This document shows positions 49,324-61,644 of a DNA stretch of 64,000 nucleotides, in pieces. Under the pieces are notes generated by a model. The model did no database searches. It was not told where the DNA came from and worked only from the letters and a program-made list of their open reading frames with translations. The position numbers and the translations under genes are program-made. Source of the DNA: Komagataeibacter sp. FNDCF1 (GTDB taxonomy: Bacteria > Pseudomonadota > Alphaproteobacteria > Acetobacterales > Acetobacteraceae); contig NZ_JAIWOT010000001.1 in NCBI RefSeq assembly GCF_021295335.1, positions 1,801,001-1,865,000 of the forward strand, written 5' to 3'. How positions within the stretch are numbered: position 1 is the stretch's first letter; every line of letters starts with the position of its first letter.

Positions 49324-49476
49324 GAAACGAAGCAGAATGAATATTGCCGCTGGATCCGGAGATAAGACTTTCAAGCAATGATGTCCGCTTTGCGAAACAC
49401 AGTCCAGCACTCCGCATGACCAATGTGTAGGCGTAAGCGAACATCGCGAAGATGAATTATCCTCCTGACACAACAT
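49324..49476. other. Spacer between hipA and dnaE2; nothing recognised
   Basis: About 150 bases between the hipA stop and the dnaE2 stop (convergent). No clear terminator hairpin. Confidence 0.4.
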
Positions 49477-50899
49477 TCAATGAAAATTCCGGGCCTTCAC
49501 AAGGATATTTTCGACAGACCTATCCTGATCAAGGTTGGAGAGAGCCTGCAGCGACCGATTCCCCACATCGGCCAGCAGGTGGGAGAGATCCACAATCTCA
49601 CGCGCCACCAGATGCACCACCTCCCCTTCCTTCTGCAACCGTCCGACAACCCCCAGCATCTGGCCTGAGAGGACCACACGATGAAAGCGCTCGAACATAT
49701 CGGGCCAGATAATCACGTTGATCGCCGCCGTCTCATCCTCCAGCGTCATGAACACCACGCCCTCGGCCGAACCGGGCCGCTGACGGACCAGCACCAATCC
49801 TGCCACCGACAGGCTGCTCCTGTCCCGGGCCTCCAGGGCCTGCCGGCACGTCACCATCCCGCGTTCGCTAAGATCATCGCGCAGGAAAGCCACGGGATGA
49901 TCCCGCAGGGTCAGGCCAGTGCGGTTGTAGTCGCGCGCGACCTCAGCCCCGTCCCGCATGGGCTGGAGCAGCACCTCAGGTTCTTCCGCCTCACGCATGA
50001 CGGCGGCCGCGGCAAACAGCGGCAGAGGTTCGTCACGTAGTGCTTTGATCGCCCACAGCGCCTCGCGCCGGGCCAGACCCAGCCCCGGCCGGAAAGCGTC
50101 CGCCTCGGCCAGATGGGTCAGGGCCACCCCCTTCACCCCTGCCCTACGCCACAAATCGTCGACCGAGGCAAAGGGGCGGTTGCCCCGCACCGCCACGATG
50201 CGGGCGGCATCCTCATTGGCCAGCCCTTTCACCAGGTTCATACCCAGACGGACGGCAAACAGCCCGTCATCCCGCTCCGGGCCTTCAAGCGTGCTGTCCC
50301 AGCGCGAGGCGTTGATGCAGATCGGTCGGATCTCGACCCCGTGCTCGCGCGCATCGCGCACAAGCTGGGCCGGGGCGTAGAATCCCATGGGCTGGCTGTT
50401 CAGGAGGGCTGCCAGAAACACATCCGGATTGGCGCATTTCATCCAGGATGACGAATAGGCAAGGATGGCAAATGAGGCGGCATGGCTTTCGGGAAAGCCG
50501 TAACTGCCAAACCCCTCCAGTTGCTGGAAAATGCGCTCGGCAAAGGTCTCGGGATAACCGCGCGCCGTCATGCCCTCGATCAGGCGCGTGCGGAAGCGCG
50601 AGACCGTGCCGGTGTTCTTGAAGGTGGCTATGGCGCGGCGCAGCTGGTCGGCCTCGGAGGCCGAAAACCCGGCGCAGACCATGGCCACCTGCATCACCTG
50701 TTCCTGGAATAGCGGAATGCCCAGCGTCTTCCTGAGCACCTTTTCGAGTTCCGGCGTCGGGTAGACTTCCTTTTCCTGCCCGGCCCGCCGGCGCAGATAG
50801 GGATGCACCATGTCGCCCTTATGTGGACGGCCTTTACGATGCAAGAGGTCACATTGATTGCATTGTCGTATCTTTCTTCTGCGTATTTTCGCTCCAGCG

Positions 50900-51161
50900 A
50901 AATGCACTGATACTGTCATGATGTGGAGATCCGGTCAGATGCGCCCTTATGTCCGGCCTGTTTATGCGAAATCCTTCGCTGGCCATCATGGGTGTTCGCT
51001 TGCGTGTCAGGCACCAATCTGGATCTCGTGCTCAATGGCACATGGGGACATTCGGTATTGCCTGAACTGCTTCTGATTACAGTCTTTCCCATCACGCGGT
51101 CAGTGCATACTGCCGGATCTACCGGAGCTTATTCCGGTATCCATCATCCTGGTGGTACATG
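50900..51161 (-). ncRNA. Candidate guide (bridge/seek) RNA of the IS110-family element
   Basis: The 3' non-coding part of the element contains CGCCCTTATGT (50942-50952), identical to 11 bases across the left dnaE2/IS junction (50814-50824), and CACC-A-ATCTGGAT (51012-51024), matching ATCTGGAT across the right junction (52267-52274) plus CACC just inside it. Both copies run in the same orientation as the junctions and are about 70 bases apart. Guide loops that pair with target and donor ends should look like this. The RNA limits are not known. Confidence 0.55.
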
Positions 51162-52193
51162 TCAGACTATAGCGACACTGCGACCGGCCGGACGATAGAT
51201 CTCTTTGCGCGACAACAAAACCCAGATGATCCGGGCCAGCTTGTTGGCTAACGCCACGGTTGCCAGACGGCCCGGGCGACGTTCCAGAAGCTTGCAAAGC
51301 CATACTCCCGCAGCGCTATCCCATTTCTGTGCGCGGTAAAGCATGGATGTTGCGCCCAGAACGAGCATCTTTCTTATTTCCCGGTTGCCCGTTTTGGTAA
51401 TTCTGCCCAATCGGGTTTTTCCGCCCGATGAATGCTGGCGCGGTACGAGACCAAGCCAGGCTGCGAAGTGCCGGGCCGTATCGAAAGCCCCAATATCGGT
51501 AACAGACGCGACAATCAGGGAGGCGGTTACCGGACCAATGCCCGGGATGGTCAAAAGACGGCGAGCATCTTCATCCTGTTTGGCATGTGTCCGGATACCT
51601 CCTTCCAGGTTTTCTATGCTTTCGTTCAGTCGACCATACTGTTCAAAGAGCAGCATGGTTGTCTGTTTCAGGGCATCAGGCAGATTGGATGAGGTTTCGA
51701 TTTTCGCCAGAAGTTCGGGGAGACGGGCATTTCCAAGGGGAACAATCAAACCGAATTCCGCTGCAAGTGCACGCAACGCATTCACCAGCATCGTTTGCTG
51801 TTTGACCAGAAGGGTACGAGTTGAGTGCAGCGATAACAGGCTTTGCTGCTCCCGATTTTTAATCGGGACGAAGCGCGTGTCGGGATGGATCGCGGCAAGA
51901 CAAATCGCGGCGGCATCAACAGCATCGTTTTTCTTGCCACGTTTGACAAATGGTTTGACCATTTCAGGGGGAATGAGTTTTACCTCATGACCGGTGTCAC
52001 GGATGACACGAGCCCAGTGATGCGACGTGCTACAGGCTTCGAGTACGACCAGGCAGCGCTCCAGCTTTTCAAAGAATGAGATAACTTCACTCCGCCCGAG
52101 TTTCTTCTTGAGCAGACATTTTCCGCTTGCGTCCGTGCCATGCACTTGAAAAACAGACTTGGCGATATCCAGGCCGATTATGGTAACTTTCAT
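51162..52193 (-). CDS. IS110-family transposase (DEDD recombinase)
   Basis: 343 residues from ATG 52193 (MKVTIIGLDIAKSVFQVHGT). The N-terminal RuvC-like DEDD domain shows D in GLDIAKS, E in LVVLEACSTSHHW and D-D in KNDAVDAAAI. The C-terminal transposase-20 domain has LLTIPGIGPVTASLIVASVT, FAAWLGLVPRQHSSGGKTRL and the serine region. The frame is also open upstream into dnaE2, so read-through could give a 977-residue DnaE2-transposase fusion. Confidence 0.92.
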   Translation of the reverse strand: MKVTIIGLDIAKSVFQVHGTDASGKCLLKKKLGRSEVISFFEKLERCLVVLEACSTSHHWARVIRDTGHEVKLIPPEMVKPFVKRGKKNDAVDAAAICLAAIHPDTRFVPIKNREQQSLLSLHSTRTLLVKQQTMLVNALRALAAEFGLIVPLGNARLPELLAKIETSSNLPDALKQTTMLLFEQYGRLNESIENLEGGIRTHAKQDEDARRLLTIPGIGPVTASLIVASVTDIGAFDTARHFAAWLGLVPRQHSSGGKTRLGRITKTGNREIRKMLVLGATSMLYRAQKWDSAAGVWLCKLLERRPGRLATVALANKLARIIWVLLSRKEIYRPAGRSVAIV

Positions 52194-52332
52194 CCGGGCG
52201 GTCTCCTCTGAATGGTCTTCCGACCTCATCATGGCACATTGATGTCGCATGGAGGCCGTCCACCCCATCTGGATGGGGCCGGGCCGGACGATGGCCACCT
52301 CGATCACCAGATCATAGAACACCCGGGGCCTG

Positions 52333-52376
<44 letters not shown>

Positions 52377-54091
52377 CACCCCGATCGTGTCCGCCTTCCG
52401 GATCATGGCATAGGTGCGCGGATCCTCGGCCGGGATGGTCTGCAGCGTGTAATGCTGCCCCTTGTGTTCGGCCAGAAGGTCCAGCCCCTTCTTCATGCAG
52501 GTCAGCATGCCAAGGGCCAGCACATCCACCTTCATGAATTTCAGGACGTCGATATCGTCCTTGTCCCATTCGATGATCTGGCGAGCGTCCATGGCCGCCG
52601 GTTCGATCGGCACCAGTTCGTCCAGCCGGTCATGGGTCAGGACAAACCCGCCGGGATGCTGCGACAGGTGGCGCGGCACGCCGATCAGGCACCGGGCCAG
52701 ATCCAGCGTCAGCCGGATCCGCCGGTCGGACAGGTCGATCCCCGTTTCATCCAGCGCGTCCTCATCCAGCTTGCGCCCCCAGCCCCAGATCTGCCCGGAC
52801 AGGGTGCGGATCAGGTCTTCGGGCAGGCCCATGACCTTGCCGACATCGCGCAGCGCCCCCTTCGCACGGTAGCGCGTGACCACGGCCGTAAGGGCGGCGT
52901 GGTTGCGGCCATAATGACCATAAATCCACTGGATCACCTGCTCCCGGCGCGCATGCTCGAAATCCACGTCGATATCGGGCGGCTCGCGGCGCTCTTCGGA
53001 GACGAACCGCTCGAAGAGCAGCGACGTCCGTGCCGGATCGATGGCGGTAATGCCCAGCACGTAGCAGACAGCGGAATTGGCCGCCGATCCTCGCCCCTGG
53101 CACAGGATGCCCTGCGAGCGGGCGTAACGGACGATGCTGTGGACGGTCAGGAAATACGGCGCGTAATCCATGCGCCCGATCAGGGCAAGTTCATGGTCGA
53201 GGGTTTTTCTGACCTCGGGCGGAATGCCTTCGGGATAGGCCGTTGCCGTCCCTTCCCAGGTCAGGGATTCCAGCGCCTGCTGCGGCGTCAGGCCGGGGAT
53301 GGAGACCTCGTCGGGATACTGGTAGGCCAGGTCATCAAGGCTGAAGCGACAACGGGTCACGATCTCATGGGTCCGGTCGATCGCTTCGGGATAGCGGCTG
53401 AACAGCCGGGCCATTTCTGCAGGCGGCTTGAGGTAGCGGTCCGCATGGCGCTCACGCGCGAACCCGGCTTCGTCGATGGTGGTGTGGTTGCGGATGCAGG
53501 TCACCACATCCTGCAGGATGCGCCGGTCATGGGTGTGGAACAGCACGTCATTGGTCACGACCGCTGGCACACGCGCCTGCCGGGCGAGGTTCGCCAGTTC
53601 ATACAGCCGCATCTGGTCATTGGGCCGGCGCCGCAGGGTCAGCGCCATATAGGCCCGGTCGGCAAAGGCGTCCTGCAGCTTGCGCAGATGCAGGGCGCAG
53701 GCATCATCCGCCGTGTCCGGGAGCAGGATCACAAGGAGCCCTTCGCCCCATGCCACCAGATCCTCCCAGAGCAGATGGCATTTCCCCTTCCCCGCCCGGG
53801 CCTTGCCAAGGGTGAGCAGCCGGCACAGGCAACCATAGGCGGCTCGGTCCGTCGGATAGACCAGCACGGGCGCGAAATCGGCAAGGTCCAGACGGCAGCC
53901 CACGACCAGGCGGATGCCGGTCTCTTTGGCAGCGACATGGGCCTGCACCATGCCCGCCAGGGAATTGCGGTCGCAGATGCCCAGCGCTTCAATGCCAAGG
54001 GTCTTCGCCTGCTCGAACAGTTCAATCGGTGAGGACGCGCCGCGCAGGAACGAGAAATAACTCGTCACCTGCAGTTCGACGTACTGCACGC

Positions 54092-55630
54092 TCATTCAAA
54101 GAGACCGTGCAGGAACCAGCCCTGCGAACCGGTCTCGCCATGTTCGCCATCCCCGGTCCGGTAAACCCAGAATGTCTCGCCGCTGGTATCTTCCACCCGG
54201 AAATAGTCCCGCACGGTGGTCAGTTCGGCATCCCCTTTCCACCATTCGCCAAACACGCGCTCAGGGCCATCGGCGCATCTGATCCGGCGGCGGATGCCGC
54301 GCCAGATGAAGAAGACCGGCGGATGGTCGGGCAACATCGCCATGGTCTGGATCGGCTCGGGACGGGGCAGCAGGCGCGTGGGGCGCGGCCAGTGATCCGG
54401 CCACTCCTTTCCGTCCTCGGGTGCGAGTGCGGGCACGCGGCAGACGGCCCGCTCTGGCACATCGCTTTCCACCGGGGCGAAGCGATACAGGGCCTGCGTG
54501 CCGACGCGGTTGGCCAGGGTATCGATCAGGTCGGAGACGTCGGCCTCTTCTTCCTCGATCAGGGCGGAGACACCCTGGCGGTGCAGGATCGGCTCGGCCA
54601 GCGACGCGGTCAGCACCATGCGCTCGATCCCGAAGCCCGGATCGATGGTCTCGATCCTGTCACAGAGCAGACGGGTCAGGCGTCTGACATCCCGCACCGG
54701 CAGGGCCGTGGCCACGCGCAGGGCCTCGGTTCGGCTGTCCACCCGGTGCAGCAGCAGGTCGAGGCGGCGCACGCCCTGCTCGCGTTCCTCCAACCCGGCG
54801 CACAGGGGCGGCACGAGTTTGGTGATGTAGCGGGCAATGGTCTCGGCTGCGCTGATCGGTTCGGCAAAGTTCCGGCTGACCTGCACCGGCGCCTGCAGCC
54901 GGACCGGGACAATGGCTTCCGCCTGCCGCCCGAAAGCCTGGTCCAGCCTGCGGGCGACATCCAGGCCGAAGCGCAGGGCCAGCGGTGCGCGCGGCATACC
55001 GGCCAGCGGGCCGATGCGTGACACGCCCAGCCCATGGAGGCCATCAATGATATCCTCTGGCAGGCGCAGGGCCTCGATGGGCAGGTCGACAATCGCTGCC
55101 GCCGTCTCACCGGGCGGCACGAGGGTGATACGTCCCCGGCCATAGCGCGCCAGCGCATGGGCGGCACCCCATGTATCGGCAATCGCGGCCCGGGCCGTCA
55201 TTCCGGACTTCTTCAGGCGGGTGACCATGTTCTCCAGCATGACGGCCTCGCCCCCATGCAGGTGATCGGCACCGGTCGTATCCAGCACGATGCCGTCGGG
55301 TGGATCGGGGGCCACGATGGGAGCGATGCGGTGCTGGAACCACAGCGCTAGCCGCTCCAGCCCTGCCCGGTCACCGTCCGGGTCGGCATCCATGATGAGC
55401 AGATCGGGATGGAGCGCCTGCGCTTTCGCAACAGGCATGCCGGGACGCAGGCCCAGCCTGCGGGCGGCGAGATCGACCGATAGCACGACCCGTCGCCGCC
55501 CTTCCCGTCCGACGAGCGCCAGCGGGCGGTCAGGCGCGGGCGCGTCGGTTCCCAGCCGCTTCCTGAGCCGGTCTGTCGGCCAGAGCGGCAGGTAGAGCGA
55601 GACGACACGGTGCCAGTCTCCCTTTGGCAT
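54092..55630 (-). CDS. imuB: ImuB, Y-family-like mutasome scaffold protein
   Basis: About 512 residues from ATG 55630 (MPKGDWHRVVSLYLPLWPTD). A longer in-frame start at 55675 is less likely. It has the ImuB Y-polymerase-like core (VDLAARRLGLRPGMPVAKAQ, DGIVLDTTGADHLHGGEAVM) but not the full set of catalytic acids, and a long C-terminal region with EWWKGDAELTTVRDYFRVED. ImuB links ImuA and DnaE2 to the beta clamp. It overlaps imuA by about 100 bases and dnaE2 by four. Confidence 0.9.
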   Translation of the reverse strand: MPKGDWHRVVSLYLPLWPTDRLRKRLGTDAPAPDRPLALVGREGRRRVVLSVDLAARRLGLRPGMPVAKAQALHPDLLIMDADPDGDRAGLERLALWFQHRIAPIVAPDPPDGIVLDTTGADHLHGGEAVMLENMVTRLKKSGMTARAAIADTWGAAHALARYGRGRITLVPPGETAAAIVDLPIEALRLPEDIIDGLHGLGVSRIGPLAGMPRAPLALRFGLDVARRLDQAFGRQAEAIVPVRLQAPVQVSRNFAEPISAAETIARYITKLVPPLCAGLEEREQGVRRLDLLLHRVDSRTEALRVATALPVRDVRRLTRLLCDRIETIDPGFGIERMVLTASLAEPILHRQGVSALIEEEEADVSDLIDTLANRVGTQALYRFAPVESDVPERAVCRVPALAPEDGKEWPDHWPRPTRLLPRPEPIQTMAMLPDHPPVFFIWRGIRRRIRCADGPERVFGEWWKGDAELTTVRDYFRVEDTSGETFWVYRTGDGEHGETGSQGWFLHGLFE

Positions 55631-56306
55631 CACAGGCCTCCACTTCAAAATCGGCGCATTCGCCCGCGCGGGCACGGATCAGTTCCAGCAGCCAGCGGGA
55701 CCGGCCGACGCCGGGCACTGGCAGCGGCACGGATGGGAGGACGGATACCCGCCACCGGGTGACCGAAGCGGTGGGCTGGCCGAAATCCGCCGCATCCGTC
55801 TGCCGCCGCCAGCGCCGTATGGCGATGCCCAGTGCGCCGGATGTCTCGGCCGCCAGCTGCAGGCGACGTGACGCGGTCATGGACAGGCGGGCCACCTCGG
55901 CGACGACTGCGCCCAGCCCCTGATGGCGCAATGCCTCCTCGAAACAGGCCAGCACATCGACGTCCGAACTGGCTGCGACATAGATGGTCCGTCGCGCCGA
56001 CAGGCCGACCTGCTGCAGTGCGGGGGCATACAGGTCCTGACGGGTGGCGATCCACAGTACCTTGCCCCTTGTCCGCGCTGCGATTCCGGCGGAAAACAGG
56101 CCGGATGCCGCTGCATTCAGGGCGTCATGGCCGCCGCCTGCCACTTCATGCAGCGCGCCCAGCGCCAGTCCGCCGTCTGGCAGGCGACCGTCAATCTCGG
56201 GCACCCCGAAGGGCAGCACGCCCCGCCTGCGCCGGCCCTGGCCTTCGAGGCGGCTGACCTGTGCTCTCAGCGCCTCCAGCGCGGGACGTGGTTGAGATGC
56301 GGGCAT
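55530..56306 (-). CDS. imuA: ImuA, RecA-like SOS mutagenesis protein
   Basis: A 258-residue protein (MPASQPRPALEALRAQVSRL) with the ImuA/SulA-like pattern VLPFGVPEIDGRLPDGGLAL, GALHEVAGGG and GKVLWIATRQDLYAPALQQV. It has no full Walker A. It is the first gene of the imuA-imuB-dnaE2 cassette, and its start lies 50 bases from a LexA box. The large overlap of its 3' end with imuB suggests coupled translation. Confidence 0.88.
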   Translation of the reverse strand: MPASQPRPALEALRAQVSRLEGQGRRRRGVLPFGVPEIDGRLPDGGLALGALHEVAGGGHDALNAAASGLFSAGIAARTRGKVLWIATRQDLYAPALQQVGLSARRTIYVAASSDVDVLACFEEALRHQGLGAVVAEVARLSMTASRRLQLAAETSGALGIAIRRWRRQTDAADFGQPTASVTRWRVSVLPSVPLPVPGVGRSRWLLELIRARAGECADFEVEACDAKGRLAPCRLALPAALADRPAQEAAGNRRARA

Positions 56307-56355
56307 GGGGTCGGACAGTCCATTCGGGTGTTTCTGGCATGGAATCAGTGATTGT

Positions 56356-56370
56356 GTTCGTTATTTGTTC
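56356..56370. promoter_or_regulatory. LexA (SOS) box GTTC-N7-GTTC
   Basis: GTTCGTTATTTGTTC exactly fits the direct-repeat LexA site of alphaproteobacteria. It lies between the divergent imuA (50 bases) and SRAP (200 bases) genes, so both may be damage-inducible. Confidence 0.88.
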
Positions 56371-56570
56371 TGGTACGGTGACGAATGTCAACCCATCCTG
56401 GAAAAGCGACTGTGATCCGGACGCGGGTACAGGCCTGTCGGCCGATCGTGGCTTGATGAAAACTGTCTGGATTGCAGGGGTTTATCAGGAACAGTCCAGC
56501 CGTCTTCGTCCTGAAGGGTGGGTACCGTCTGGCAGGACACCCATATCCGGACTCGCGAAAGGACGGCGTG

Positions 56571-57221
56571 ATGTGCAACCTCTATGCGATGACCAGCAGC
56601 CAGCAGGCGATCCGGGAGGCGGCCCGGGTCATGACCGACCGCACCGGCAATCTCCGGCCCCTGCCCGAGATCTGGCCCAACACCCTGGCGCCCATCGTGC
56701 GGAACACGCCGGATGGGCGGGAACTGGTCATGGCGCGCTGGGGCATGCCCACGCCGCCGGGCTACCTGAAAGGGCACAGGGTTGATCGGGGTGTGACCAA
56801 TATCCGCAATCCCATCTCGACCTGGTGGAAACGATGGGAAGGTGTGGCGCATCGCTGCCTGGTGCCGCTCACGGCTTTTTCCGAACCGGAGCGCCTGCCG
56901 GATGGGACCAGCAGGCCCGTCTGGTTTGCCCGCAGCGATGGAGAGCCGCTGGCTTTCTTTGCCGGAATCTGGTGTCAGTGGACGTCGGTACGGAAACTGG
57001 CGGATGGCGAGACGACGGATGACCTGTTCGGCTTCCTGACCACCACCGCCAATCGGGAAGTCGGCGCCATTCATCCGAAAGCCATGCCGGTCATCCTGAC
57101 CCGTTTGGAAGAACTGGATCTGTGGATGAAGGGGCCTTTGGACGATGCGCTACAACTGCAACGTCCCCTGCCCGACGATGCCCTAACGGTCGCGAATGCT
57201 TCTGTGGGACGTAATTATTAA
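56571..57221 (+). CDS. SOS-response-associated peptidase (SRAP/HMCES/YedK)
   Basis: 216 residues from ATG 56571, which places the catalytic cysteine at position 2 (MCNLYAMTSSQQAIREAARV). An upstream in-frame start would bury it. Other SRAP features are the GRELVMARWGMPTP strand, VTNIRN for the conserved Asn, CLVPLTAFSEPE (Glu) and a conserved His in GAIHPKAMPVIL. SRAP proteins crosslink to abasic sites in single-stranded DNA and protect them. Divergent from the imu cassette with a LexA box between. The last residues may be altered by the transposase remnant directly downstream. Confidence 0.92.
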   Translation: MCNLYAMTSSQQAIREAARVMTDRTGNLRPLPEIWPNTLAPIVRNTPDGRELVMARWGMPTPPGYLKGHRVDRGVTNIRNPISTWWKRWEGVAHRCLVPLTAFSEPERLPDGTSRPVWFARSDGEPLAFFAGIWCQWTSVRKLADGETTDDLFGFLTTTANREVGAIHPKAMPVILTRLEELDLWMKGPLDDALQLQRPLPDDALTVANASVGRNY

Positions 57222-59358: not shown

Positions 59359-59824
59359 GGAACGAAGCGCCCAAATGGCCTTGGTAAAGGGGAAGAATAC
59401 GAAACCCGAGCTTCGCGTCCGCCGCGCTTTGCACGCGGCGGGCTTTCGATATCGTCTCCATGACAAATCCCTTCCGGGACATCCGGATATTGTTTTTCGT
59501 TCTCGGAAAACGGTGATCTTCGTCCACGGATGCTTCTGGCACCGCCATTCAGATCCAAATTGCAAGCTCGCCCGGCTACCCAAATCGCGGTTAGAATTTT
59601 GGGAGCCCAAACTTGACGCAAACGCCGCTCGCGACCGACGCAACAAGGCTCTTCTGGAGGATGCAGGCTGGAAAGTTATAACAATATGGGAGTGTCAGAC
59701 GACACCCTCAACAATACAATCGACGATCGTAAATACGAAGAAACAATTAGAATATATCACTTCGAATAACGACGCCTCTAAGAGCCCGATCCGAAAGTTT
59801 TTGAACAATACCAGCCTGTTGTGA
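59300..59824 (+). CDS. vsr: Very-short-patch repair endonuclease Vsr, ends altered by IS elements
   Basis: Family sequence runs from LPERSAQMALVKGKNTKPEL to WKVITIWECQ, with the catalytic GHPDIVF (Asp), FVHGCFWHRH (zinc/His) and RDRRNKALLEDAGW. The nearest start, ATG 59300, lies in the IS256 remnant, so the native first ~7 residues are replaced. The stop at 59822-59824 lies inside the next IS1031-like element, so the tail SPIRKFLNNTSLL is foreign. The core is complete and could be active. No cytosine methyltransferase (dcm) partner is in the window. Confidence 0.82.
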   Translation: MIVSQWPEKVPPHKILHSLPERSAQMALVKGKNTKPELRVRRALHAAGFRYRLHDKSLPGHPDIVFRSRKTVIFVHGCFWHRHSDPNCKLARLPKSRLEFWEPKLDANAARDRRNKALLEDAGWKVITIWECQTTPSTIQSTIVNTKKQLEYITSNNDASKSPIRKFLNNTSLL

Positions 59825-60711
59825 TTCATCCGTCTTTGCGAAGAGATGGAGTGAATGGTGACATGGACTGGTATTGCCCGGCGCGAGTATAGCCGGGAAG
59901 GCTTGCGATATCCATCGGACATGACGGACGGGGAGTGGACTTTGATCATGCCATTTGTGCCCCCTGCGAAACGGGGCGGTCGTCCGCGCACGACGGATAT
60001 GCGCGAGGTGGTCAACGCGATGCTCTACATAGCCTCGGCCGGGTGCGCGTGGCGTCTGCTGCCGAAATGCTTTCCGCCGGTCTCGACCGTCAGGCGCTAT
60101 TTTTACGCCTGGCGTGATGCCGGAGTATTCGAGGCCATGAATACGGTGCTGGTCATGAGCCTGCGCGAGATCGAGGGGCGTGACGCCTCTCCGAGCGCAG
60201 GCGTGATTGACAGCCAGTCGGTGAAAACCACGGAAAGTGGCGGGATTTCAGGCTATGACGCGGGGAAAAAGGTCAAGGGCCGCAAGCGCCATATCGTGAC
60301 GGATACCTGCGGCTTCCTGATCTTTCTCCTCGTTCATGCCGCCGACATCCAGGACCGTGATGGGGCCGTTGATGTCCTGGCAGCGATACGCAGGCGCTTT
60401 CCCTGGCTGCGCCACATCTTTGCTGATGGCGGTTATGCTGGCGACAAATTGCGAAACGCGCTCGCCGCCATGGGAAAATGGACCCTCGAAATCATCAGGC
60501 GGTCCGATACGACGAAGGGCTTTCAGATCCTGCCGCGTCGCTGGGTGGTGGAACGGACATTCGCATGGCTGGGACGGTGCAGGCGGCTCGCCAAAGATTG
60601 GGAACAATCCATTGCTTCCTCAACCGCATGGACATTGATCGCCTCGATCCGAATGCTCACACGACGGACAGCAAGGCATTGTCAGGGTTGAAAAACTTTC
60701 GGATCGGGCTC
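59782..60711 (+). mobile_element. IS1031-like element, tandem copy 1
   Basis: 930 bp, GAGCCCGATCCGAAAG ends, TAA at 59779-59781 and 60712-60714. The second TAA is shared with tandem copy 2. Confidence 0.92.
59855..60691 (+). CDS. IS5-family (IS1031 group) transposase
   Basis: A 278-residue intact frame, over 95% identical by eye to the copy in narK. Motifs GVIDSQSVKTTE, ADGGYAGDK and RRWVVERTFAWLG are present. Confidence 0.93.
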   Translation: MVTWTGIARREYSREGLRYPSDMTDGEWTLIMPFVPPAKRGGRPRTTDMREVVNAMLYIASAGCAWRLLPKCFPPVSTVRRYFYAWRDAGVFEAMNTVLVMSLREIEGRDASPSAGVIDSQSVKTTESGGISGYDAGKKVKGRKRHIVTDTCGFLIFLLVHAADIQDRDGAVDVLAAIRRRFPWLRHIFADGGYAGDKLRNALAAMGKWTLEIIRRSDTTKGFQILPRRWVVERTFAWLGRCRRLAKDWEQSIASSTAWTLIASIRMLTRRTARHCQG

Positions 60712-60714
60712 TAA

Positions 60715-61644
60715 GAGCCCGATCCGAAAGTTTTTGAACAATACCAGCCTGTTGTGATTCATCCGTCTTTGCGAAGAGATGGAGTGAATGGTGACATGGA
60801 CTGGTATTGCCCGACGTGAACATAGCCGGGAAGGAATGCGATATCCATCGGATACGACGGACGAGGAGTGGGCTCTGATCATGCCATTTATACCCCCGGC
60901 GAAACGGGGTGGTCGCCCCCGCACGACGGATATGCGCGAGGTGGTCAACGCGATGCTCTACATAGCCTCGGCCGGGTGTGCGTGGCGTTTGCTGCCGAAA
61001 TGCTTTCCGCCGGTCTCAACCGTCAGGCGCTATTTTTACGCCTGGCGTGATGCCGGATTGTTCGAAGTCATGAATACGGTCCTGGTCATGAGCCTGCGCG
61101 AGATTGAGGGGCGTGAAGCCTCTCCAAGCGCGGGCGTGATTGATAGCCAGTCGGTAAAAACCACGGAAAGCGGCGGGCTTTCGGGCTATGACGCGGGTAA
61201 GAAGGTCAAGGGCCGCAAGCGCCATATCGTGACGGACACCTGCGGCTTCCTGATCTTTCTCCTCGTTCATGCCGCCGACATCCAGGACCGTGATGGGGCG
61301 GTTGATGTTCTGGCGGCAATACGCAGGCGCTTTCCCTGGCTGCGCCACATCTTTGCTGATGGCGGCTATGCTGGCAACAAATTGCGATCCGCGCTCGCCT
61401 CCATGGGAAAATGGACGGTCGAAATCATCAGGCGGTCCGATACGGCGAAGGGCTTTCAGATCCTGCCGCGCCGCTGGGTGGTTGAACGGACATTCGCCTG
61501 GCTGGGACGGTGCAGGCGGCTCGCCAAAGATTGGGAAAAGTCCATTGCTTCCTCAACCGCATGGACATTGATCGCCTCGATCCGCATGCTCACACGACGG
61601 ACAGCAAGGCATTGTCAAGCTTGAAAAACTTTCGGATCGGGCTC
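60715..61644 (+). mobile_element. IS1031-like element, tandem copy 2
   Basis: 930 bp in direct orientation right after copy 1, with only TAA between them. TAA is repeated at 61645-61647. Confidence 0.92.
60788..61624 (+). CDS. IS5-family (IS1031 group) transposase, diverged copy
   Basis: 278 residues, intact, with scattered substitutions relative to copy 1 (REHSREGMRYPSDTTDEEWA), showing that it is a separate lineage rather than a fresh duplication of its neighbour. Confidence 0.93.
   Translation: MVTWTGIARREHSREGMRYPSDTTDEEWALIMPFIPPAKRGGRPRTTDMREVVNAMLYIASAGCAWRLLPKCFPPVSTVRRYFYAWRDAGLFEVMNTVLVMSLREIEGREASPSAGVIDSQSVKTTESGGLSGYDAGKKVKGRKRHIVTDTCGFLIFLLVHAADIQDRDGAVDVLAAIRRRFPWLRHIFADGGYAGNKLRSALASMGKWTVEIIRRSDTAKGFQILPRRWVVERTFAWLGRCRRLAKDWEKSIASSTAWTLIASIRMLTRRTARHCQA

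What the first reader, a model, noticed from the sequence alone, without database searches (positions are those of the whole stretch)
50818..52274. IS110-family element carries copies of both of its own insertion junctions in its 3' non-coding region
Seen directly: CGCCCTTATGT at 50942-50952 equals the 11 bases across the left dnaE2/IS border (50814-50824), and ATCTGGAT at 51017-51024 (with CACC before it) equals the 8 bases across the right border (52267-52274, with CACC inside). Both are in the same orientation and about 70 bases apart, in the 340-base stretch after the transposase gene. A specified 11-mer would be found by chance in 340 bases less than once in a thousand trials. Known: IS110/IS1111 elements use a non-coding bridge or seek RNA whose loops pair with target and donor ends around a 2-base core. 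Here the core is CT. Inference: this is the guide RNA that chose dnaE2.
Basis: partly seen in the sequence, partly recalled or inferred. Interest (0 to 1): 0.82.

Follow-up and report, generated by a model that had tools for sequence, protein, structure and literature searches.

The report
IS1111 transposon's target-guide RNA
A small jumping gene in an acetic-acid bacterium appears to encode an RNA whose two short guide stretches match the DNA-polymerase gene it sits in; this is a fresh example of an RNA-guided transposon type described in 2024, not a new kind of system.

Summary
In detail: both strings lie where stated. The element is an IS1111-type IS110-family insertion, 1,451 bp with one 2-base core, in dnaE2. 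Its 3' non-coding region looks like a seekRNA/bridge RNA at 50914-51097, minus strand.

In Acetobacteraceae relatives, a right-target guide is the reverse complement of each copy's own right flank (18 guides: summed runs 124, permuted mean 59.1, 0 of 100,000 as high). In the window it lies at 51042-51052 and was missed. The 11-mer at 50942-50952 is not a junction guide: CTTATGT is the fixed donor-end guide, and CGCC is fixed scaffold (RNA GGCG in 16 and AGCG in 1 of 17 readable guide lineages), matching dnaE2 by coincidence.

Added: copies sit at the same dnaE2 codons in 8 of 19 genus genomes; three others with full copies have IS 99.6-99.9% but flanks 90-94% identical to the window's. An 82.5% relative in Kozakia does likewise with its own matching guide. 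One single-base guide change matches a single-base target change.

The parts
50818..52268 (-). IS1111-type insertion sequence, 1,451 bp counting one copy of the 2-base core (CT on +, AG on the transposase strand)
   Evidence: Ends set by comparing copies at different sites
51162..52196 (-). transposase, 344 aa; carries GLVPRQHSSG, which fits the GL-P----S(t)G motif given for IS1111 in PMC11187229
   Evidence: Pfam DEDD_Tnp_IS110 and Transposase_20; NCBIfam NF033542 IS110 family RNA-guided transposase, 336.1 bits against a cut-off of 140
50914..51097 (-). candidate seekRNA / bridge RNA region
   Evidence: Covariance model R1 hit, 201.6 bits (the window copy is one of the 14 rows of the model); fold z-score -2.09, 7 of 200 shuffles as low; helices
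51042..51052 (-). right-target guide, RNA AAUGUCCCCAU, reverse complement of GGGGACAT; the dnaE2 allele here reads GGCGACAT, one mismatch
   Evidence: Guide/target match across 18 right-guide lineages, permutation 0 of 100,000
51017..51024 (-). left-target guide plus core, RNA AUCCAG, followed by AU
   Evidence: Left-target match 49 of 65 bases against permuted mean 22.5, 0 of 100,000
51028..51041 (-). hairpin GUGC/GCAC closing the target loop between the two target guides
   Evidence: Paired in 14 of 14 rows, one pair varies on one side; GUAU/AUAC in the Kozakia relative (read by eye)
50946..50952 (-). left-donor guide, RNA ACAUAAG, identical to the right end of the element plus core
   Evidence: Invariant columns in A1; same letters as the element's right end; role inferred
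50942..50945 (-).
   Evidence: RNA GGCG in 16 and AGCG in 1 of 17 readable right-guide lineages; stem 111-113/171-173 of A1 paired in 14 of 14 but never varies
50988..50994 (-). candidate right-donor guide, RNA CACCCAU, complementary to AUGGG of the left end
   Evidence: Inference from position in the fold and conservation
50824..50833 (.). subterminal inverted repeat TGGACGGCCT, right-end copy
   Evidence: Sequence
52253..52262 (.). subterminal inverted repeat AGGCCGTCCA, left-end copy
   Evidence: Sequence
50839..50844 (-). TTGCAT, -35-like box that would pair with a -10-like TAAGAT formed only when the ends join (17-base spacer)
   Evidence: TTG at this position in 10 of 11 elements that I picked; promoter activity not tested
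52271..54095 (-). dnaE2 5' part (607 aa)
   Evidence: Best NCBIfam hit PRK05672 error-prone DNA polymerase, profile 3-626 of 1047; a half gene, so below the whole-protein cut-off
49477..50817 (-). dnaE2 3' part (446 aa)
   Evidence: Best NCBIfam hit PRK05672, profile 629-1047 of 1047; likewise below the whole-protein cut-off

Best explanation
The element is an IS1111-group insertion sequence. When its two ends join in a circle, a promoter forms at the junction and drives the transposase gene and the downstream RNA (inferred from published IS1111 biology and from the end sequences). The RNA binds the transposase (inferred). One internal loop pairs with the target: AAUGUCCCCAU pairs with the right half on the transposase strand, and AUCCAG copies the left half plus the AG core. 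A second loop pairs with the joined ends of the element (CACCCAU and ACAUAAG; inferred). Recombination at the 2-base core places the IS between ATCC-AG and GGCGACATG, the codons for Ile-Gln-Gly-Asp-Met of DnaE2. The target-guide match is shown by comparison of relatives; donor pairing, RNA production and chemistry are inferred from known members.
For: Transposase family. Non-coding region downstream of the transposase gene, subterminal repeats, and top-strand match 5' of bottom-strand match, as published for IS1111 (PMC11187229). Right-target guide versus own right flank: 18 lineages, summed longest run 124, permuted mean 59.1, highest 93, 0 of 100,000; 28 of 31 guide/site pairs have a run of 5 or more and 21 of 31 have 7 or more. 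Left-target guide: 13 lineages, 49 of 65 bases, permuted mean 22.5, highest 42, 0 of 100,000. L004 and L012 lie at the same position of an IS66-family transposase gene (Pfam PF03050) and differ at 15 of 1,450 bases; the one difference in the right-target guide (T/G) matches the one difference in the guided target bases (TCATACAG/TCATCCAG). Fold: 26 named pairs, 99.2% of cells paired, 4 pairs with changes on both sides. dnaE2 copies of the window's type with a readable site are occupied 9 of 16; more distant dnaE2 copies 0 of 15.
Against: In the window itself the right guide matches dnaE2 at only 8 of 10 positions with a longest run of 5, because the allele has GGC where the guide reads GGG and the core G is unmatched. 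Three of 31 sites do not fit: L083 (run 2, a duplicated right end), L120 (run 3), L065 (run 4, altered end). Six left sites, all group C (L033, L055, L056, L082, L046, L083), match at only 2 of 5 bases. The same window guide is also found at other sites than dnaE2 (L003, L022, L032, L037). Most helices hardly vary: the number of further pair types, 7, is no higher than in shuffles (mean 7.5), so support for the fold rests on few pairs, and the outer and middle donor-loop stems never vary. RNAalifold's own consensus draws the donor part differently. The right-donor guide is placed by position only. No Rfam family matched. The permutations treat related guides as independent, and the best of nine offsets was taken, in own and permuted pairs alike.
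Confidence: 0.95

Rival explanations
1. One reading: two segments of the RNA each copy one whole insertion junction (target plus element end) and both guide from the same strand sense.
For: The 11-mer and 8-mer are present; the 11-mer is not expected by chance (0 of 20,000 shuffles).
Against: The CGCC half is GGCG in 16 and AGCG in 1 of 17 readable right-guide lineages, with unrelated right targets, and is unchanged in copies of this same IS at other sites. A separate segment of opposite sense does follow the right target.
Confidence: 0.02
2. The matches are relics of past duplication or DNA-level repeats bound by the transposase, with no guide RNA.
For: ACATAAG is fixed and could serve as a protein-binding repeat; one relative (L083) shows a duplication of its right end, apparently between two ACATAAG stretches.
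Against: Relics would not follow each copy's own target on both sides, nor lie in opposite-sense arms of a shared fold.
Confidence: 0.03
3. Beside the guide reading: dnaE2 occupancy reflects one old insertion inherited or carried on plasmids, not repeated targeting, so the dnaE2 cases are one event.
For: dnaE2::IS lies on named plasmids in K. medellinensis and Kozakia; the block with dnaE2::IS is on both C1 and C2 in this genome. Well supported tree branches force only 2 changes of state.
Against: In three other genomes with full copies the IS is 99.6-99.9% identical to the window's where flanks are 90-94%; parsimony needs 7 changes, bootstrap 6-7; the occupied dnaE2 of G016 and an empty one of G017 are almost identical; the Kozakia insertion is one base displaced.
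Confidence: 0.2

Closest known systems
IS1111-type seekRNA elements (ISEc11, ISPa11, ISKpn4; PMC11187229: abstract, two of four parts of the results, section 13, discussion and passages read)
   Same: Transposase type, long non-coding region downstream of the gene, subterminal repeats, top-strand match 5' of bottom-strand match, natural redirection among relatives
   Different: Different target (dnaE2 codons) and different RNA sequence; no RNA evidence here. In the parts read, that paper marks target matches in the RNA; a donor loop is proposed here from the fold
IS621 / IS110 bridge RNA (PMC11208160: passages and one section read; PMC11208158: listing only)
   Same: A target loop and a donor loop; the 2-base core of IS621 is recalled
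   Different: RNA lies upstream in most of the IS110 group, and target matches are in the other order (PMC11187229 abstract)
ISEc21 (IS110 group; a passage of PMC11187229)
   Same: The passage speaks of a target at conserved codons, those around the second D of a DDE transposase
   Different: IS110 group, upstream RNA, other target gene

Membership tests
IS1111 group of the IS110 family | DEDD transposase with C-terminal Transposase_20 domain, 330-350 aa | tested here: met
   344 aa; Pfam and NCBIfam hits
IS1111 group of the IS110 family | Subterminal inverted repeats of 7-17 bp | tested here: met
   TGGACGGCCT at 50824-50833 and its reverse complement at 52253-52262, 10 of 10
IS1111 group of the IS110 family | Longer non-coding region downstream of the transposase gene | tested here: met
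   About 340 bases downstream, about 72 upstream
IS1111 group of the IS110 family | Top-strand target match 5' of bottom-strand target match in the RNA | tested here: met
   51042-51052 precedes 51019-51024 on the minus strand; both follow the target across relatives
IS1111 group of the IS110 family | Promoter formed at the joined ends | tested here: inconclusive
   TTGCAT-17-TAAGAT across the junction; TTG kept in 10 of 11 picked elements; activity untested
IS1111 group of the IS110 family | Small RNA co-purifies with transposase and is required for transposition | not testable with these tools
   Needs bench work
Bridge RNA (two-loop model) | Donor loop pairing with both element ends | tested here: inconclusive
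   ACAUAAG equals the right end; CACCCAU placed by position; donor sequences hardly vary, so there is no covariation to test
Rfam families | Match above gathering score | tested here: not met
   Only a chance hit outside the element, mir-6790 at 18.1 bits against 78 (50600-52500)

The most novel reading that the evidence does not exclude
This IS lineage behaves like an RNA-guided homing element for one conserved protein motif (Ile-Gln-Gly-Asp-Met of DnaE2; its role as the SOS error-prone polymerase is recalled). It re-enters the same codons in species after species, its guides differ at the synonymous positions that differ between hosts (ATC/ATT, CAG/CAA, GGC/GGG), and it breaks the host's error-prone polymerase each time, so that the host's mutation rate is tied to the transposon's guide.
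Probability: 0.4. Interest if true: 0.55.

Novelty: new member of a known kind. Interest (0 to 1): 0.32.

Why it matters
It corrects how the guides of this element should be read, which matters for predicting targets from sequence: the two target guides are of opposite sense and face each other across a hairpin, while the conspicuous 11-base junction copy is donor guide plus scaffold. The Acetobacteraceae set gives natural guide/target covariation, down to a single base between two copies that differ at 15 positions, and so makes natural retargeting of IS1111 elements testable. Repeated loss of dnaE2 could affect mutability in Komagataeibacter.

Tried and rejected
Chance alone for the 11-mer: rejected. 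CGCC as guide: rejected because it is fixed. An exact search of the empty dnaE2 site in the non-coding region gave only matches of 6 to 8 bases, so the guides had to be found by comparing relatives. Enrichment of in-frame fusions between target gene and transposase: looked at by eye in the open-frame lengths; long frames are a minority, so not claimed. Rfam: nothing. A genome-contig scan with one protein gave 21 loci, 18 of them Komagataeibacter. The R1 model also hit 17 genomes besides our own, of 385 drawn at class level, none above 49.4 bits; their targets were not analysed. Target genes other than dnaE2 and IS66 were only glanced at in flank frames. In one search at most 20 candidates per genome were scored, and searches used stricter filters, so their counts are lower bounds.

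Paper searches: seekRNA+IS1111 (6 papers), bridge RNA+IS110+IS1111, dnaE2+IS110 none, bridge recombinase+IS110 none, two of bridge RNA/recombinase/IS1111 (38 papers, 30 listed), Komagataeibacter+insertion sequence+IS110 one paper (passages read: it reports IS110 transposase expression, and says that the role of IS110 there is unclear), dnaE2+insertion sequence+acetic acid bacteria none, IS1111+dnaE three, unrelated by title. In these searches I saw no paper on this element at dnaE2; subscription papers and bioRxiv are not in the library.

Rows dropped: one search gave 94 rows, 47 distinct. One search used 31 distinct guide/right-site and 29 distinct guide/left-site pairs from 20 guide pairs, leaving out copies cut at contig ends or without a recognisable end, and copies whose RNA did not fit the anchor pattern. 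The Kozakia copy L211 came later, did not fit the pattern, and was read by eye; it is in no count. The pattern allowed two mismatches, so a few captured ends are fuzzy (for example the left guide of L162).

Full report
Observation. CGCCCTTATGT occurs at 50814 and 50942 only; ATCTGGAT at 51017 and 52267 on the + strand and once elsewhere on the - strand. In 20,000 dinucleotide shuffles of the non-coding region the 11-mer never arose and the 8-mer arose in 454. The core is CT (AG on the transposase strand). The empty site reads ATCC-AG-GGCGACATG on the transposase strand, inside an error-prone DNA polymerase gene split into 607 and 446 residues (best NCBIfam hit PRK05672 for both halves, each below the whole-protein cut-off as a half gene would be).

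What it is. The transposase (344 aa, minus strand) hits Pfam DEDD_Tnp_IS110 and Transposase_20 and the NCBIfam model for IS110 family RNA-guided transposases. The ends carry a 10-base subterminal inverted repeat, TGGACGGCCT, and the longer non-coding region is downstream of the gene. These are the published marks of the IS1111 group (PMC11187229; read: abstract, results parts 1 and 2 of 4, section 13, discussion and passages). That paper reports that the RNA of IS1111 elements has a segment matching the top strand of the target 5' of one matching the bottom strand.

Relatives. The own genome holds two identical copies in dnaE2 (C1 and C2), a third identical copy at an unrelated C2 site, an 80% copy, and a broken copy in two pieces. 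13 of 19 genus genomes have a match to the IS, some of them only short pieces. 72 of 299 family genomes have a transposase match at 1e-60. 51 of 397 family genomes match, at 1e-6, an RNA model built from 14 of these RNAs, the window's among them.

Where the guides are. Aligning the RNA of relatives shows a conserved scaffold with two variable segments. The first lies between the stem ending in CCG and the stem GUGC (window 51042-51052, RNA AAUGUCCCCAU); the second lies after GCAC (window 51019-51024, RNA AUCCAG). Of 31 distinct guide/right-site pairs, 28 have a run of at least 5 bases in which the first segment is the reverse complement of the copy's own right flank, and 21 have at least 7. 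With one site for each of 18 guides the summed run is 124 against a permuted mean of 59.1 and maximum of 93, 0 of 100,000 reaching 124. The second segment matches the own left flank at 49 of 65 bases for 13 guides, against a permuted mean of 22.5 and maximum of 42, 0 of 100,000. Clear examples are L055 and L090 (runs of 10) and L086, L088 and L089 (9). The order, top-strand match first, is that of IS1111. Exceptions: L083 (2), L120 (3) and L065 (4) on the right; on the left six group C sites match at only 2 of 5 bases.

What the 11-mer is. In the RNA it reads ACAUAAG-GGCG. ACAUAAG is the same in 17 of the 17 right-guide lineages in which it could be read, of 19, and equals the element's right end plus core, so it is most likely the donor guide. 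The next four bases are GGCG in 16 and AGCG in 1 of those 17 lineages, with unrelated right flanks, and they are unchanged in copies of this very IS whose right flanks begin CGGG, GGGG and GGGA. Two of them belong to the arm CGC that pairs with GCG in the structure I named (columns 171-173 with 111-113 of A1, 14 of 14 paired, never varying). Their match to the GGCG of this dnaE2 allele is therefore coincidence; one other lineage, L090, also matches 4 of 4.

Fold. The window RNA folds at -57.6 kcal/mol, z -2.09, with 7 of 200 shuffles as low. A structure with a target loop and a donor loop (26 pairs, named by me from that fold) is formed by 99.2% of cells, against 22.5-39.3% when slid by 1-3 columns. 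Four pairs have changes on both sides, reached by 2 of 500 shuffles; the number of further pair types (7) is no higher than in shuffles (mean 7.5). Support from covariation is modest because the sequences are alike; the outer and middle donor-loop stems never vary. RNAalifold's own consensus draws the donor part differently, so the donor loop is the less certain half. PMC11208160 (section 12 read) says that many IS1111 RNAs have the donor bases in a multiloop.

Single-base test. L004 (own genome) and L012 (another genome) lie at the same position of an IS66-family transposase gene (Pfam PF03050 in both right flanks). Their elements differ at 15 of 1,450 bases. One difference is in the right-target guide (T/G, element position 1224), and it matches the one difference in the guided target bases, TCATACAG versus TCATCCAG. 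This is one case.

dnaE2. In 19 genus genomes the dnaE2 copies nearest to the window's (94% protein identity or more) with a readable site number 16: 9 occupied (G000 twice, G002, G003, G004, G005, G011, G013, G016) and 7 empty, one of these (G007) in a gene truncated upstream. Occupation of G003 and G016 is inferred from contigs that end a short way into the IS on each side, that of G005 from one such contig; G002 from contigs that hold the IS with one flank each. The 15 more distant copies with frames over 1,000 codons (87-89% and 60-61%; one holds a stop codon) are unoccupied; two partial copies were not classed. In three other genomes with full copies (G002, G004, G011) the IS is 99.6-99.9% identical to the window copy while the flanks are 90-94% identical (L008, L010, L009, L059; L064 is probably the G011 insertion under its public name). 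G013 has a 93% IS with other guides. A tree of dnaE2 N-halves needs 7 changes of state (bootstrap 6-7), but well supported branches force only 2. The Gluconobacter copy L065 (IS 95%) and the Kozakia plasmid copy L211 (82.5%) are also in dnaE2. The Kozakia insertion is displaced by one base, and its guides (GCATCCAAG; AATGTCGCCGT) match that allele (ATCCAAG; GGCGACATGG), with a GUAU/AUAC hairpin in place of GUGC/GCAC (read by eye). Each half-guide of this lineage spells a codon variant seen in some dnaE2. Against a simple homing picture: a copy does not always sit in its best allele (the window guide reads GGGGACAT in a GGCGACAT gene, L011 the reverse), and the same window guide also occurs at other sites (L003/L022, L032, L037). 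A passage of PMC11187229 already tells of an IS110-group target at conserved transposase codons, so aiming at conserved codons has a precedent.

Mechanism. Shown: target guides follow targets; ends and core. Supported: fold of the target loop. Inferred: RNA expression, donor pairing, circle intermediate, recombination at AG. A -35-like TTG box in the right end lies 17 bases from a TAAGAT that exists only when the ends are joined; the TTG is kept in 10 of 11 elements that I picked, in line with the junction promoter described for ISEc11.

Verdict. A well-documented new member of the IS1111 seekRNA/bridge RNA group.

Noticed in passing
51162-54095 (-): The 5' half of dnaE2 reads in frame through the IS left end into the transposase, a 977-codon open frame also present in G002, G004, G011 and G013; the K. 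medellinensis frame is annotated as a single IS110 transposase.
   Followed up: partly
49477-50919 (-): The 3' half of dnaE2 is open in frame with an ATG inside the IS right end, giving a 480-codon frame.
   Followed up: no
49426-56652: A 7.2-kb block with dnaE2::IS and the adjacent polymerase-Y-like gene is present at 99% identity on contig C2 of the same genome, so both dnaE2 copies of this type found there are interrupted.
   Followed up: partly
L083, 2740-3001: In G185 the right end is followed by a second copy of the region after the donor guide and a second right end, as if two ACATAAG stretches had recombined.
   Followed up: partly
L013, L037, L052, L119: Some insertions have the right target motif one base closer to the core than others made with the same right guide, so the guide seems to tolerate a one-base shift.
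   Followed up: partly
L015, L086, L119, L211: A few copies have GG instead of AG at the right-end core.
   Followed up: no
about 59778-60715: A repeat of about 940 bases in the window has at least 29 further copies in the genome at 97-100% identity, probably another IS.
   Followed up: no
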